Origin: Methyloversatilis sp. XJ19-49 | GTDB taxonomy: Bacteria > Pseudomonadota > Gammaproteobacteria > Burkholderiales > Rhodocyclaceae | DNA: 64,000 nucleotides | NCBI RefSeq assembly: GCF_024580145.1 | Contig: NZ_JANINI010000009.1 | Span: forward strand, 62,001-126,000 | Direction: 5' to 3' | Shown: in pieces, positions 1,362-48,610 of the stretch | How the letters are laid out: every line of letters starts with the position of its first letter | Numbering within the stretch: the first letter of the stretch is position 1 | The notes under the pieces: model-generated | Seen by the model: the letters and a program-made list of their open reading frames with translations, nothing else | What the model was told of the DNA's origin: nothing | Databases searched by the model: none | Position numbers and translations under genes: made by a program

Positions 1362-1724
1362 ATGATCACCCGACAGCGCATCGTCACCGTACTGACCACC
1401 ACGGCCATCGCCTATTCGATCTGCTCGCCGACCCAGGCTGCCGGTCTGGTGGGTGCCGCGCGCCTGCAGGCGCGCGAGCCGACCACCGAAGATGTCGATC
1501 ACTCCTTGCAGAAGGCGATCCAGGTGGCTTTTCGTGCCGATCACGCGCTCGACGGCATTGATGTTGCAGTGTCTTCGCACGCCGGTGATGTGACCCTGTC
1601 CGGTACCGTGCGTAATGCCGCGCAACTCGCCCGCGTACTGCAGACGGCCCTGTCAGTCGCCGGCGTGAGGCGGATCGACAATGCGCTGGCCGTGGCAGAA
1701 GAACGCCCTGGCGACTCGGCGTGA
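1362..1724 (+). CDS. Small secreted BON-domain protein
   Basis: 120 residues, preceded by a strong ribosome site (AAGGAGGAGACCTC before ATG). The N-terminus is a Sec signal peptide with likely cleavage after TQA (about residue 27). Residues ~45-110 form a single BON domain: a helix (SLQKAIQVAFRADHAL), then beta strands around VAVSSHAGDVTLSGTV, a helix, and a final strand with the typical 'VRRIDNALAV' ending. BON domains bind lipid or other envelope components, so a periplasmic, envelope-stress role is likely. The gene follows the sigma-54 activator and has its own sigma-54-like promoter. A strong bidirectional terminator closes it. Confidence 0.75.
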   Translation: MITRQRIVTVLTTTAIAYSICSPTQAAGLVGAARLQAREPTTEDVDHSLQKAIQVAFRADHALDGIDVAVSSHAGDVTLSGTVRNAAQLARVLQTALSVAGVRRIDNALAVAEERPGDSA

Positions 1725-1754
1725 GAGCGACTTCTTTCCCTTCGCCGGAAACGA

Positions 1755-1786
1755 AAAAGCCCCAGCCGCGCAAGGCTGGGGCTTTT
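1755..1786. terminator. Bidirectional rho-independent terminator
   Basis: A 13-bp perfect stem (AAAAGCCCCAGCC / GGCTGGGGCTTTT) with a 6-nt loop and T-runs on both sides. On the plus strand it ends the BON transcript. On the minus strand it originally ended the tRNA transcript; prophage insertion has moved the intact tRNA about 46.7 kb away. Confidence 0.85.
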
Positions 1787-1791
1787 GTGTC

Positions 1792-1840
1792 TGGTGGGCC
1801 CCCCGAGAGTCGAACTCGGCACCAACGGATTATGAGTCCG
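1792..1840 (-). repeat. attL: 49-bp duplicate of the tRNA 3' half
   Basis: Identical over 49 bp to 48532-48580; the flanking bases differ on both sides. It contains the CCA end, T arm, variable loop and anticodon arm of the tRNA (minus sense) but not the D arm or the 5' acceptor strand, so it is a remnant displaced by integration and not a functional tRNA. Confidence 0.93.
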
Positions 1841-2388
1841 GGCCGCTTTGCTCAGCCGATCAATCGGTTACGTTCGATCCTTACGCACTATCACGACAAA
1901 TTGAGTCACGGTTCTCTGCGGGTTTGCCGGCGTCCACTGAACGAATAGTGAGCGCTCTTTCGGCGCTGCTCTCTCCCCCGTCTTTCAGTCGCGCGAAGTC
2001 GCCAGTCGGCGCGGTCTTCGCGCGCCTCGGTCGACCGAACCCCACTCAGGCGCAGCGGATTAGCGCCGGCGAAAGATCCAGGAGCGGGCGGACTGGATTG
2101 ACGGGCTGTCGAATGCGGCTCAGAGATAAAGAAATACGACGTATCCCAAAGACGTAGTTTCCGCGCGCCCGCGTCATTCTATGGACGGTTTGCCGTGCAA
2201 TAGCGCAGCGCGCCGTCGCTATCGACCGCACAGCTAGACAGCATGCGGCCGACATCCACGCAAGTTGCCTGTCAAGGCTATTGCGGCGTGAAAGGACATG
2301 ATTCAATACTTGCCAGCACGTTCGAAAACGCATTGATGTTGAATGGCTTTCAAAAAAGCCATCCACAAGTAATCCACAGCTTGTTGTC
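1841..2388. other. Non-coding left end of prophage, with a possible integrase arm site
   Basis: I see no convincing gene here; open frames are short and lack ribosome sites. An 11-bp motif TGATAGTGCGT (minus strand, 1883-1893) matches 10 of 11 bases of TGATAGTGCGC beside attR (48462-48472), and a looser TAGTGAGCGC lies at 1946-1955; these may be integrase or Xis arm-type sites. Two near-DnaA-box sequences (ATCCACA, AATCCACA) lie at about 2360-2379, next to an inverted repeat ATGGCTTT...AAAGCCAT at about 2343-2362. Confidence 0.4.
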
Positions 2389-2416
2389 TTGTGCGGAAAA
2401 AAAGCGCGTTTAGAAT
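2389..2416 (+). promoter_or_regulatory. Candidate sigma-70 promoter for the structured RNA / NYN unit
   Basis: TTGTGC, 16 bp, TAGAAT, which predicts a start near 2423, at the beginning of the structured region. It is the only good promoter match between attL and the NYN gene. Confidence 0.5.
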
Positions 2417-2422
2417 GTGTTT

Positions 2423-2670
2423 CATGCCTACCGCCACTAAATATGGTGTTCGCCGCGCAGGTTTGCCCTGCCGGTAGTGGTCGGATGGATGGGTGGCAGC
2501 CGAGACGTAAGTCCCGGCCGCCTGAGCCGTTTGCACAGCTCGCCTTGGAAAGTGGATTGTGCGCCGGGTCTGCCTATGTCGACAACCCCTTCAATGGGAG
2601 ATGGCTATGCCTCCGCCACCACGATGCGGGTGACTGAGTAGTCACCCCCCGGGCAGCTTGCTGCCCGGGT
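2423..2670 (+). ncRNA. Candidate structured RNA upstream of the NYN nuclease gene
   Basis: About 250 nt with several perfect or near-perfect helices in order. CTACCG (2428-2433) pairs with CGGTAG (2472-2477) and encloses GCAGG/CCTGC. GGCAGCCG (2495-2502) pairs with CGGCCGCC (2515-2522), with one mismatch, and is capped by GAC-GTAA-GTC, a GNRA tetraloop. GCACA (2533-2537) pairs with TGTGC (2558-2562). Two back-to-back perfect hairpins end the region: GGGTGACT/AGTCACCC (2628-2647) and CCCGGGCAG/CTGCCCGGG (2648-2669). A promoter match precedes it. CCACTA (2434-2439) can instead pair with TAGTGG (2475-2480), so two alternative folds exist. I do not recognise the RNA family. It could be a leader of the NYN mRNA or a separate RNA. 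Confidence 0.5.
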
Positions 2671-2712
2671 CATTTGCCTGTGAAAGGACGATATATCAAC
2701 CCACTACCCACT

Positions 2713-3270
2713 ATGGTTTTTGTCGACGGCACGAACTTGCTCGTGGAGTTGATCAATCGTTACAGCCTTGAAGAGCGAGCCGAGACGCCCTCCGATGAAG
2801 TCATCAATTTGGCCTCTAAGTTGATCAGCCAAGCGTTGAGCGGATCTCTGGGAACGATTGGCGCATGTCGAGTCGTGAGGAAGTATTGGTTTGGATCCCG
2901 CCAGGGGAGTGATGAAGACATTCAGACGCTTCGGATTCTCTTGAAGCGGTATGGCTACGACTCAAGTATTTATCCGAAGAGGAAGGGTCGGAACGAGAAA
3001 GGCGTTGATCTGGCGGTCGCACGCGAGATGTTGATGCAGGCCTTCCATCGGAATTATGAGGTGGCCGTTCTGGTAGGCGGTGATGCGGACTATGTAGGGC
3101 TTGTTGAAGACGTGAAACGGCTCGGCCGAACATGTGTTGGTGTATTCCCAAACGGGAATTCGATGTCGGACAAGCTGCTCATCAGTTTGGATCGTTACTT
3201 CGAGATTGCTGGACCTGCGGAGGTTTTGACGTACCAGCTCGCCAAGGCTCGCGCGCAGTCAGCAGACTGA
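2713..3270 (+). CDS. NYN-domain (PIN-fold) ribonuclease-like protein
   Basis: The protein starts directly with the first conserved strand of the NYN fold (MVFVDGTNL), followed by EKGVDLAVAREML and LVGGDADYVGLVEDVKRLG. These supply the acidic residues expected of the metal-binding site (Asp in VDGTN, Asp in GVDL, and the two Asp of GGDAD). NYN/LabA/DUF88 proteins are PIN-like nucleases acting mostly on RNA. I chose ATG 2713 (185 aa) because the domain begins there. Upstream in-frame TTG 2674 and GTG 2680 are possible; no start has a good ribosome site, which suggests translation is coupled to the RNA structure just upstream. Its place beside attL, outside the lytic blocks, marks it as cargo. 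Its target is unknown. Confidence 0.8.
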   Translation: MVFVDGTNLLVELINRYSLEERAETPSDEVINLASKLISQALSGSLGTIGACRVVRKYWFGSRQGSDEDIQTLRILLKRYGYDSSIYPKRKGRNEKGVDLAVAREMLMQAFHRNYEVAVLVGGDADYVGLVEDVKRLGRTCVGVFPNGNSMSDKLLISLDRYFEIAGPAEVLTYQLAKARAQSAD

Positions 3271-3347
3271 TCAACGTCCGACACAACCCCATAAGCATTA
3301 CTGCGATCCGTCGCCAAGTGTTGCGATCGGAGCGCAGTCGCGCGCAC

Positions 3348-3878
3348 TCAGTGCAGGCGGGCGGCCGATTCATTCAGGACGTCGTACGCTCGTTCGCAGG
3401 CCCGTCCCGCTATTCCTCTGCGGTCAGTTTCTTCAGCCAGTTCTCGACCCGCGATCTCCATTTCGCCGAGCACGTCGGCGAGCAGATCGGGATCGCTTCG
3501 GGTTGCCTCGCCTGCAACGGCAGATCCGGGATCGTCGGGGCTTCGACGACAACCGGCGGTGATTGCGGCGACACGCTGGCGCAGCCGCCCAGCAACATCA
3601 GATGCAGCAGCAGCGTCAGCACGAACGGCTTCGAGTTGGGTTTGCGTGGCATTGGTGATCTCCCATAGGGCGGTAAAGCGGCGAGCGTCTTCTGCGCGTG
3701 CATCGGTCTCGGCTTCGCGACCGGTGCGTTCGAGGGTGGCCATCTGCTGCGCGTGGTCGCGCTGCGTGCGGGCGTGTGCGGTTTGTTCGCTGGCCAGCCG
3801 GTAGGTCTGCAGGCCGGCGAGCGCGAGCGCGCCGAGCAGCAGCCACGGGACGCTCCGAGTCAGGATTTTCGAGAGCAT
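3348..3878 (-). CDS. Rz-like inner-membrane spanin
   Basis: 176 residues: an N-terminal membrane anchor (VPWLLLGALALAGLQTYRLA), then a long charged helical region (HARTQRDHAQQMATLERTG...), as in i-spanins. A second gene with a lipobox is embedded in another frame of the same DNA, the classical Rz/Rz1 layout. The gene is the last of the lysis cassette and of the late operon. The spanin pair connects inner and outer membranes and fuses them in the final lysis step. Confidence 0.75.
   Translation of the reverse strand: MLSKILTRSVPWLLLGALALAGLQTYRLASEQTAHARTQRDHAQQMATLERTGREAETDARAEDARRFTALWEITNATQTQLEAVRADAAAASDVAGRLRQRVAAITAGCRRSPDDPGSAVAGEATRSDPDLLADVLGEMEIAGRELAEETDRRGIAGRACERAYDVLNESAARLH
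3410..3652 (-). CDS. Rz1-like outer-membrane spanin lipoprotein, embedded in the Rz gene
   Basis: 80 residues from the ATG at 3652, which has a good ribosome site (GGGAG). The signal peptide ends in the lipobox LLGGC, so the mature protein would be a lipoprotein, followed by a proline-rich stretch (QSPPVVVEAPTIPDLP) as in Rz1. It lies entirely inside the Rz-like gene in a different frame. An upstream in-frame start at 3703 would add 17 residues ahead of the signal peptide and is less likely. Confidence 0.78.
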   Translation of the reverse strand: MPRKPNSKPFVLTLLLHLMLLGGCASVSPQSPPVVVEAPTIPDLPLQARQPEAIPICSPTCSAKWRSRVENWLKKLTAEE

Positions 3879-4345
3879 CAGCGCGCTCCCTTCGTCGTCT
3901 CGATCAGCAGCTGGTGCTCGCCGAGGCGCAACACTCCGCGCAGATCCCCCAGGGCGATCTGACTTGAGATCACGACCGACTCGCCACTCTGGGTGCCGTG
4001 CTTACGGCCGACGGCAATGCAGCCGATCACGTCGCTGACGCGGTTGCCGGCGTGGATAAGCACTGCCGATCGGCCCCAGCCTTGCGCGCGCGGTACGTCA
4101 TGCGGCTGGTACCACACGCCCAGCGCCGGGTTGATCAGCGCCCAGACGCTGGGAAACCGCTCGCTGCTGTGCTGGATCAGCCGGTACTCGCCGTCCGGTA
4201 CGCACGAGATGCGCGGCTTTCCACCCGGGCCCGCCGGGTTGGGCACCCATGGCCGCTCAATCGTGGCCAGCTCAAGATCGCCAGCGACGAGGCGGCCGAG
4301 CGTGCATGTGTGGTGGTACGCGAAGCGGGTGAGGACGATGTTCAT
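3878..4345 (-). CDS. DUF5675-like protein in the endolysin position
   Basis: 155 residues. Pattern: T-x-G-R-L...LATIERPWVPN near the start, ISCVPDGEYRL, then RSAVLIHAGNRVSDVIGCIAVG. This fits the phage family DUF5675. The His...Gly-Cys-Ile arrangement resembles the active-site layout of YkuD L,D-transpeptidases (H-x-G...GC), which is only a motif-level similarity. The gene lies between holin and spanins, where an endolysin normally sits, and no other endolysin is visible in the prophage. A cell-wall role is therefore inferred, not shown. It overlaps the holin stop by 4 bp. Confidence 0.65.
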   Translation of the reverse strand: MNIVLTRFAYHHTCTLGRLVAGDLELATIERPWVPNPAGPGGKPRISCVPDGEYRLIQHSSERFPSVWALINPALGVWYQPHDVPRAQGWGRSAVLIHAGNRVSDVIGCIAVGRKHGTQSGESVVISSQIALGDLRGVLRLGEHQLLIETTKGAR

Positions 4346-9761: not shown

Positions 9762-10292
9762 TCACTTTTCCTCGGTGTTCAAGGCCCATCCCGATACGCC
9801 GCTGGCACTGTCCGTTGTGTGCTCAGGCGGGTCAGCAATGACGACCAGCTGCGGGAAGTAGATGACGCTGTAGCCCACAGCACCGGCCACGGCGACGAGC
9901 GTTGCCGTGTGCGAGGCGATCGAAATCGATGTCTGGACCTCGTTGCCGTTGGCCAGGTGAGCGCGTGCCGTCGGGAGGTACGGCGCATCGGTTCGGCGCG
10001 CGACCGGCAGTGCGATGACGTTGCTGTTGCTCAGCACCGAGTGCGGCTCGCCGCACTTCAGGACAAGGCCGGCCGGGTTGTCCCAGTCAAGGGCATCGAC
10101 GCCCAGCGGGCACCAGCCCTCGCCGGACAGCTGAACAGCCAGCTTTCGGTAGTGGGTCTGCTTTAGGGCGTCGCCGTTCATCATCCGGCGCAGCGAAGAG
10201 CCGCCAGGCAGAGGAGCGATGCGCTGCTGGATGTCGCCGGCCACGGTGTATGGCACCGCGATTCCGCCGAGCTCGAATGCGATTCCGTTCAT
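9762..10292 (-). CDS. Phage tail protein downstream of tape measure, unknown
   Basis: 176 residues, beta-rich, with a GEGWCPLGVDALDW motif. Immediate overlap (4 bp) with the tape-measure gene suggests a distal-tail or minor-tail role by position. No domain recognised. Confidence 0.55.
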   Translation of the reverse strand: MNGIAFELGGIAVPYTVAGDIQQRIAPLPGGSSLRRMMNGDALKQTHYRKLAVQLSGEGWCPLGVDALDWDNPAGLVLKCGEPHSVLSNSNVIALPVARRTDAPYLPTARAHLANGNEVQTSISIASHTATLVAVAGAVGYSVIYFPQLVVIADPPEHTTDSASGVSGWALNTEEK

Positions 10293-37503: not shown

Positions 37504-37659
37504 TAGGTACTTTTTTCCGATTTGTCGCCCTACGGTAGTCTCGGAAATTAATGCCTGACAAAGTTAATCTTTTAATGGTTTTGCTGAGAGTGAGTTTTGC
37601 GTCTCTCTTAAGCTTATACGCATAACCTCTAGGTTTGACACGAAAAGCTGGATAAAGAG

Positions 37660-37685
37660 AGCCCGCGCACACGCGGGCTTTTTTT
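37660..37685 (+). terminator. Rho-independent terminator after the cassette
   Basis: AGCCCGCG-CACA-CGCGGGCT followed by a T-run to 37685. It ends the rightward cassette transcript and insulates it from the convergent DUF4124-like gene. The 37504-37659 stretch holds no gene that I can support. Confidence 0.85.
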
Positions 37686-37687
37686 CG

Positions 37688-38128
37688 TCAGCAGTCTCGC
37701 TTGATCTGGTTCTGCAGCGCAGGGATGCGCGCCTTCGCGCTGTTGTATTGCCAGTGCACTGCGCCGTTTCAAACTGTTGATTCGGCGACGTCGAGATCGC
37801 GCTTAAGGTCGCTGCAACGGCGTTCCTTGCGATCCGCCGCGAGATTATCCAGAGGTCTATTCGCTTCTCGGATTTCCTTCAGCCGCTGCTCGTTCTCGGC
37901 TTCGGCACGCTCCCTCTGCTTCAGGTTTCGGAACTGGCGATCCCACGCTTCGTCGCGCCACCCGTCCGGGGTATCACCCCGAGGCGGCTTGACGTTGACC
38001 GGCTGGGCGCTCGCACCCCAGGGCATGTCGGCAAACACGGTGTTGCCTTTCGCATCCTTGCACTTGTGAACCTGACCAAACGCCGGCGCGCAGACCAGCG
38101 CCAGCAGCAGCACGCCACTTCGAATCAT
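37688..38128 (-). pseudogene. DUF4124-like secreted protein gene interrupted by an in-frame TGA
   Basis: From ATG 38128: signal peptide (MIRSGVLLLALVCAPAFGQ), then a DUF4124-type segment (VHKCKDAKGNTVFADMPWG), then a Glu/Arg-rich helix. The frame stops at TGA 37769-37771 after ...DVAESTV (119 aa). The same frame continues for 26 further sense codons with protein-like sequence (NGAVHWQYNSAKARIPALQ...IKRDC) to TGA 37688-37690. This suggests a nonsense mutation that removes the last part, including a terminal Cys that might pair with the Cys in RCSDLK. The short form may still work. Confidence 0.55.

Positions 38129-48531: not shown

Positions 48532-48610
<79 letters not shown>

What the first reader, a model, noticed from the sequence alone, without database searches (positions are those of the whole stretch)
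2389..3270. Candidate undescribed RNA + NYN nuclease unit at the left prophage end
A promoter match starts a ~250-nt region with six helices, including a 7-bp-plus helix capped by a GUAA tetraloop and two adjacent perfect hairpins, ending 43 bp before a NYN-domain nuclease that lacks a normal ribosome site. The two pairings available to 2472-2480 (with 2428-2433 or 2434-2439) could form a switch. Cargo genes beside attL often protect the lysogen. An RNA acting as guide, antitoxin, sensor or substrate of the NYN nuclease would be a new type of phage system; I do not recognise the RNA as any named family.
Basis: partly seen in the sequence, partly recalled or inferred. Interest (0 to 1): 0.75.

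Follow-up and report, generated by a model that had tools for sequence, protein, structure and literature searches.

The report
Conserved RNA leader, unlinked to nuclease
The stretch beside the prophage end holds a real, conserved folded RNA that looks like the control leader of a tiny gene in a sister species; the nuclease gene next to it looks like an unrelated neighbour rather than its partner.

Summary
The RNA is real; the RNA-nuclease unit is not supported. A covariance model found one clear homologue, in same-genus genome G407 (E 1e-20; plus-strand model 5e-73). Homology covers window 2191 to about 2612 (78% over 403 BLAST columns to 2591; on to the start codon): upstream DNA, promoter-like TTG-N16-TAGAAT, about 185 nt of leader, Shine-Dalgarno and start codon. 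No frame shows a coding-like third-position excess. The plus-strand fold of the window alone breaks 8 of 63 pairs in G407, against 16.2 expected (P 0.0005), with 4 two-sided changes. In G407 the leader precedes a 47-aa small ORF and a terminator-like hairpin, in a defence island (DRT10/UG17, PDC-S54). In the window an 8-codon ORF and two hairpins follow, then NYN. Homology stops before NYN, and G407 has no close relative of it. Best reading: a translational leader whose small gene was lost or replaced, with NYN as adjacent cargo. Nothing in Rfam. Only two copies are known; ligand and regulation need experiments. Folding energy favours the minus strand (z -6.0 against -2.3), the main contrary result.

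The parts
2191..2388 (+). Conserved upstream DNA; 2331-2388 is the best conserved block of the whole element and holds an inverted repeat (ATGGCTTTCAAAAAAGCCAT) and a DnaA-box-like TAATCCACA (2370-2378; TTATCCACA in G407)
   Evidence: Identity to G407 48 of 70 (2191-2260), 51 of 70 (2261-2330), 51 of 58 (2331-2388); box, G407 sequence
2389..2416 (+). Weak sigma-70-like promoter TTGTGC-N16-TAGAAT; G407 has TTGCGT-N16-TAGAAT
   Evidence: not listed by the consensus scan
2423..2606 (+). Structured leader RNA. Helices 2427-2434/2477-2484, 2435-2439/2444-2448, 2457-2461/2467-2471, 2489-2494/2572-2577, 2495-2506/2511-2522, 2524-2543/2552-2570, 2578-2581/2602-2605, 2586-2587/2597-2598
   Evidence: Homologue by covariance model; 54-pair consensus with 4 two-sided changes and no broken pair; window-only fold tested on G407
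2596..2600 (+). Shine-Dalgarno GGGAG, partly paired in the last hairpin of the leader
   Evidence: mean unpaired probability of GGAG 0.41 or 0.28 depending on length folded
2607..2633 (+). Short ORF MPPPPRCG at the start codon conserved with G407, where the ORF has 47 codons of unrelated sequence
2628..2669 (+). Two adjacent perfect hairpins (8 and 9 bp), no run of T after them; outside the conserved element
   Evidence: no terminator called
2674..3270 (+). NYN-domain gene (start uncertain: TTG 2674, GTG 2680, ATC 2695 or ATG 2713); adjacent cargo, not part of the conserved RNA element
1792..1840 (-). attL core, 3' part of a tRNA-Met gene; identical 49 bp at 48532-48580

Best explanation
It is a plus-strand transcription unit: a promoter at 2389-2416 makes an RNA whose first ~185 nt (2423-2606) are a structured leader ending in a hairpin that holds the Shine-Dalgarno just before a start codon at 2607. 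In the sister species the same leader precedes a 47-residue basic small protein followed by a terminator-like hairpin. I infer that the leader controls translation of that small ORF by hiding or exposing its ribosome site; the signal is unknown. In this prophage the small ORF has been lost or replaced (8 codons remain) and the NYN nuclease gene downstream is separate cargo that may receive read-through. Shown here: homology, preserved structure, ORF and context. Inferred: transcription, strand, translational control, read-through.
For: One clear homologue by covariance model (E 1.1e-20 among 297 family genomes; E 4.8e-73). 314 of 403 identical, window 2191-2591, plus sense, continuing through SD and start codon. 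Promoter hexamers and spacing kept. Window-only plus fold breaks 8 of 63 pairs in G407, simulated mean 16.2, P 0.0005; two-sided changes 4 against 1.1, P 0.02. Consensus of 54 pairs: 45 invariant, 5 one-sided, 4 two-sided, 0 broken; no two-sided change in any of six slid controls. Two-sided changes on plus lie in the GUAA hairpin (2), the 2524-2570 helix (1) and the SD hairpin (1). No third-position excess in any of six frames (at most 20 of 52 in the 271-column block). G407: 47-aa ORF and hairpin plus T run after it. In two unrelated loci with relatives of the small ORF, the SD is also predicted paired: mean unpaired probability 0.02 (L071) and 0.00 (L073); 0.28 in G407.
Against: Only two sequences. 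Folding energy prefers the minus strand in both (window leader z -4.4 against -1.0; G407 -2.9 against -2.2), and minus consensus also has no broken pair, with 2 two-sided changes. Structure taken from G407 breaks 13 of 66 pairs, P 0.067. Shuffle control of pair counts: 36 of 500 reach the observed value. The SD is only partly hidden in the window (0.41 or 0.28 unpaired). Relatives of the small ORF elsewhere do not have this leader (L071-L073, no R3 match).
Confidence: 0.55

Rival explanations
1. A stand-alone trans-acting small RNA on the plus strand; the small ORF in G407 and the short ORF here are incidental or make it a dual-function RNA.
For: The RNA body is conserved while the ORF is not; in the window hairpins follow the leader at once, so a discrete ~250-nt RNA is possible; long invariant stretches (e.g. 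2475-2499 region and 2524-2541) could pair with targets.
Against: SD and start codon are kept in both loci and the SD hairpin shows a two-sided change; no terminator is called in the window.
Confidence: 0.2
2. The functional RNA is on the minus strand, antisense to the leader.
For: z -5.99 against -2.28; most extreme of 322 windows; A.C mismatches of the GUAA hairpin become G.U on minus.
Against: Evolutionary test weaker: 13 of 62 pairs broken, P 0.066, structure from window; 12 of 55, P 0.11, from G407. A minus transcript would have to start in DNA right of 2612 that is not homologous between the loci. Helix 2533-2562 and the SD hairpin change in ways that keep pairs on plus only.
Confidence: 0.1
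3. RNA and NYN nuclease form one system (guide, antitoxin, sensor or substrate), as first proposed.
For: Adjacency at attL on one strand; NYN proteins are nucleases by family (established knowledge).
Against: RNA homologue without NYN; NYN relatives without RNA (48 sources searched with R3, only the window and G407 locus matched strongly); homology ends before NYN.
Confidence: 0.08
4. Conserved DNA rather than RNA: a regulatory or replication site (DnaA-like boxes, inverted repeats) of mobile islands.
For: The best conserved block is upstream, 2331-2388, 51 of 58; perfect TTATCCACA in G407.
Against: Pair-preserving changes downstream; TTATCCACA-like 9-mers are only mildly in excess in the window, 9 against 4.1 expected.
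Confidence: 0.05

Closest known systems
Structured 5' leaders that control translation by sequestering the Shine-Dalgarno (riboswitch-, thermosensor- or leader-type)
   Same: Promoter, long structured leader, SD in the last hairpin, start codon right after it
   Different: No Rfam family matches; ligand or trigger unknown; in the window the ORF is only 8 codons
DRT10 (UG17 reverse transcriptase, SLATT protein and ncRNA; passages of PMC12632851 seen)
   Same: A UG17 RT (PADLOC) and SLATT_5 gene lie in the same island as the G407 copy; both involve folded RNAs
   Different: The paper places the 137-nt ncRNA just upstream of the SLATT gene; our RNA is about 5.5 kb from the RT on the other strand, next to a small ORF and PDC-S54. 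No RT was seen near the window copy, though not every window ORF was searched
NYN-domain proteins (Pfam PF01936; LabA/DUF88-like; VPA0982, 2qip)
   Same: Pfam match over cut-off; conserved acidic residues; best Foldseek match to a low-confidence model is 2qip
   Different: Nearest relatives found are 39% identical at most over part of the protein
Type III toxin-antitoxin systems (RNA antitoxin with nuclease toxin)
   Same: RNA next to a nuclease gene
   Different: By recall, those use repeats of a short RNA upstream of a ToxN-like toxin; no such repeats or toxin were found here (direct repeats in 1700-3300)

Membership tests
NYN domain (Pfam PF01936) | Score above the curated cut-off | tested here: met
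   52.4 bits against 24.2
NYN domain (Pfam PF01936) | Conserved acidic residues of the PIN-like active site | tested here: met
   D16, D110, D135, D137 of the aligned window protein invariant in a three-sequence alignment; which are catalytic is recalled
NYN domain (Pfam PF01936) | PIN-like fold | tested here: inconclusive
   Model mean pLDDT 56.8, pTM 0.61; best PDB match 2qip, E 1.8e-3, none at 1e-3 or better
NYN domain (Pfam PF01936) | RNase activity | not testable with these tools
   Needs the purified protein
Translational leader | Conserved structured RNA between promoter and start codon | tested here: met
   Two copies
Translational leader | SD hidden by the structure | tested here: inconclusive
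   Mean unpaired probability 0.28 in G407, 0.41 or 0.28 in the window; helix 7 has a two-sided change
Translational leader | Changes expression of the downstream ORF | not testable with these tools
   Needs reporter fusions
Any Rfam family | Match at gathering score | tested here: not met
   Only a tRNA at 48535-48610 in the whole window; permissive searches give sub-threshold hits only
DRT10 ncRNA | Lies just upstream of the SLATT gene of a UG17 RT | tested here: not met
   In G407 SLATT_5 is at L070 2223-2918 and RT at 2915-4285, the RNA at 9763-9963 on the other strand
Type III toxin-antitoxin system | Tandem repeats of a short RNA before the nuclease gene | tested here: not met
   No tandem repeat family in 1700-3300; four two-copy families far apart

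The most novel reading that the evidence does not exclude
A mobile RNA control module: promoter plus sensor leader that sits in front of different cargo in prophages and defence islands (small basic protein beside PDC-S54 and DRT10 in one species, NYN nuclease in another) and switches that cargo on when phage infection changes the cell, for example when translation or an RNA-binding factor changes.
Probability: 0.12. Interest if true: 0.7.

Novelty: new member of a known kind. Interest (0 to 1): 0.35.

Why it matters
It gives a structured RNA that no Rfam family covers, with a defined promoter, fold and start codon, in two mobile or cargo loci beside defence genes. It makes a cheap test possible: whether such leaders time the expression of defence cargo. 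It also warns that an RNA next to a nuclease gene need not be its partner, and that folding energy alone can point to the wrong strand.

Tried and rejected
Notebook entries 1 and 2 still say minus; they are superseded.

A 40-aa ORF on the minus strand (2425 to 2303): a similar reading exists in G407, but all six frames are equally similar and none has a third-position excess; no tblastn match in phages at E 1. A plus frame starting MDGWQ (about 2486 onward) looked alike in both loci but fails the same test.

NYN relatives as a source of RNA relatives: 7 of 399 genomes of the order incl. our own, 93 of 369 of the class with a loose profile at E 1e-5, 1 of 29 candidate stretches in genome contigs, 0 of 15 and 1 of 34 in viral contigs, none in phages or plasmids at E 1e-5. 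Fold z of the ~300 nt upstream was computed for 34 of 35 loci (L061 too short); 2 of 34 (L007, L039) are below -3 on either strand. The starts were guessed by script; at least L038, L045, L051, L054, L059, L064 look misassigned, L005 was left out.

DNA relatives: plasmids 1 record with 22 bp; phages 2 records with 31 bp; order, 399 genomes, 306 with some match at E 1 but apart from our own the best is 26 bp at E 0.0019, judged chance (this set lacked G407); viral contigs patterns gave 3, 0, 0, 0, 0 stretches; the 3 were not read, only searched as part. Weak model hits left aside as chance: G863 and G980 (one search shows no extended match), five genomes at E 0.10-0.47. Model R2 was built and not used. 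R3 in 80 genomes of the order: only our own.

PDC-S54 as a marker: 2 of 150 genomes, no RNA there. The 47-aa ORF: 1 of 199 family genomes (G422; G407 was not drawn), 2 phage records, 1 plasmid record, no Pfam or NCBIfam family.

Papers: seven searches answered, of listings only; passages seen of PMC12813430, PMC12632851 and PMC8934634. None of the listings showed an RNA-NYN phage system; titles, counts and abstract beginnings only were read. Most subscription papers are not in that library.

Notebook entries 4 and 5 place the start codon at 2608; one search corrects it to 2607-2609 (ORF 2607-2633). The name vapC for the G407 direct repeats in the notebook is recalled, not from a call.

Full report
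Setting. The window is G000:C45:62001-126000. The finding lies just inside the left end of a prophage: a 49-bp identical core at 1792-1840 and 48532-48580, the second within an intact tRNA-Met gene, with integrase, terminase, tape measure, holin and Rz-like spanin genes between. Right of attL come about 350 bp without assignment, then the element discussed here, then the NYN gene (2674 or 2713 to 3270), then lysis genes on the other strand.

The hairpins and the NYN domain are there. Rfam has nothing at gathering score in the region and only sub-threshold hits with permissive search. Folding alone is ambiguous. The plus strand 2420-2680 has z -2.28 with 4 of 200 shuffles as good; the minus strand has z -5.99 with none of 200. 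Among 322 windows of 260 nt over both strands, with 30 shuffles each, minus 2420-2679 is the most extreme at -5.3, the plus strand of the same place -1.75.

Finding a relative. Searches by NYN protein and by DNA gave no relative of the RNA. A covariance model, R1, built from one stretch of the window (2418-2545, minus sense), was run on 297 genomes of the family: 4 match at E 0.1, our own, G407 of the same genus (E 1.1e-20, 103.8 bits) and two weak ones. BLASTN of the G407 locus against the window gives 314 of 403 identical over window 2191-2591, and the aligned sequence carries on through the Shine-Dalgarno and start codon. A plus-strand model from both copies, R3, finds only these two clearly: 7 of 41 relatives at E 1, of which five lie at E 0.10-0.47; only our own in 80 genomes of the order; only these two strongly among 48 held sources.

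What is conserved. Identity is highest at 2331-2388 (51 of 58), then the leader (58 of 68 for 2423-2490, 23 of 33 for 2491-2523, 35 of 42 for 2524-2565, 32 of 47 for 2566-2612), and drops to 34 of 88 from 2613 on. The promoter-like TTG-N16-TAGAAT is kept. None of six frames has a third-position excess; in the 271-column block third positions hold 13 to 20 of 51-52 differences.

Structure and strand. The consensus plus fold has 54 pairs: 45 unchanged, 5 changed on one side, 4 on both, none broken; the minus consensus has 44: 38, 4, 2, none broken. To avoid circularity, the fold of one sequence was tested on the other against 2000 random placements of the same substitutions. Plus from the window: 8 of 63 broken, mean 16.2, P 0.0005; two-sided 4 against 1.1, P 0.02. 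Plus from G407: 13 of 66, P 0.067; two-sided P 0.026. Minus from the window: 13 of 62, P 0.066; two-sided 3, P 0.062. Minus from G407: 12 of 55, P 0.11; two-sided 3, P 0.057. Pair counts on the plus structure reach the observed value in 36 of 500 shuffles, and no slid version has a two-sided change. So evolution favours plus, moderately; energy favours minus in both copies. Promoter, SD and ORF direction decide for plus in my judgement. Homology does not extend to the right of about 2612, where a minus transcript would have to start.

Context of the second copy. In G407 the leader is followed by a 47-codon ORF (L070 9769-9626, minus strand of the locus; predicted pI 10.4) and by a hairpin with a T run at 9612-9579 (the terminator scan did not list it). 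Next on the same strand is a protein matching PDC-S54 (E 4.2e-165). Further off lie a UG17 RT (E 1.8e-151) and a SLATT_5 gene (E 4.1e-23), beside a cyanate lyase gene. PADLOC's PDC means PADLOC defence candidate (passages of PMC12813430). UG17 with SLATT and its own ncRNA upstream of SLATT is DRT10 (passages of PMC12632851; SLATT_5 next to 82% of UG17, passages of PMC8934634). Our RNA is about 5.5 kb from that RT on the other strand, so I do not take it for the DRT10 ncRNA. A 148-column direct repeat, 78% identical, flanks the RNA and ORF.

Is NYN the partner? G407 has two NYN genes, with the same scores as two of the four in our genome, and its best match to the prophage NYN protein is E 0.0085. 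So the RNA exists without this NYN, and the NYN relatives in hand lack the RNA. In the window NYN may be read from the same promoter, since no terminator is called between them, but nothing shows a functional tie.

How it may work. Shown: a conserved noncoding stretch with pair-preserving changes, ending in a hairpin with the SD beside a conserved start codon. Inferred: the hairpin limits translation of the small ORF until a signal frees it. In two loci with relatives of the small ORF but without this leader, the SD is also predicted paired (0.02 and 0.00 unpaired), which fits a protein whose translation is held back. In the window the ORF shrank to MPPPPRCG, followed by two strong hairpins; the leader may now be a relic, a short RNA, or the 5' part of the NYN message.

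Novelty. A structured leader outside Rfam with two copies is a new member of a known kind. The bold reading, a mobile sensor leader that serves different defence cargo, is not excluded, but rests on two loci.

Noticed in passing
L007 1196-1253 (upstream of an NYN ORF near 1284-1839): A pair of attC-like core sites (RYYYAAC and GTTRRRY, 51 bp apart) before an NYN gene suggests that some NYN genes travel as integron cassettes (motif recalled).
   Followed up: partly
window 37601-37860 (+): Second most extreme fold of the window (z -4.6); the sequence holds GCCCGCGCACACGCGGGC followed by a T run, a strong terminator-like hairpin.
   Followed up: partly
L070 9375-9520 and 10240-10385: 148-column direct repeat, 115 identical, flanks the RNA and small ORF in G407, as if the unit had been inserted or duplicated.
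   Followed up: partly
window 2361-2378; G407 equivalent: DnaA-box-like 9-mers upstream of the promoter; a perfect TTATCCACA in G407.
   Followed up: no
L070 8095-9339: Full-length match to PADLOC candidate PDC-S54 directly downstream of the RNA and small ORF.
   Followed up: partly
L043 (G679:C1:4678846-4679010): NYN relative of the same subgroup as L004 with one stop inside the match, so possibly a broken copy.
   Followed up: no
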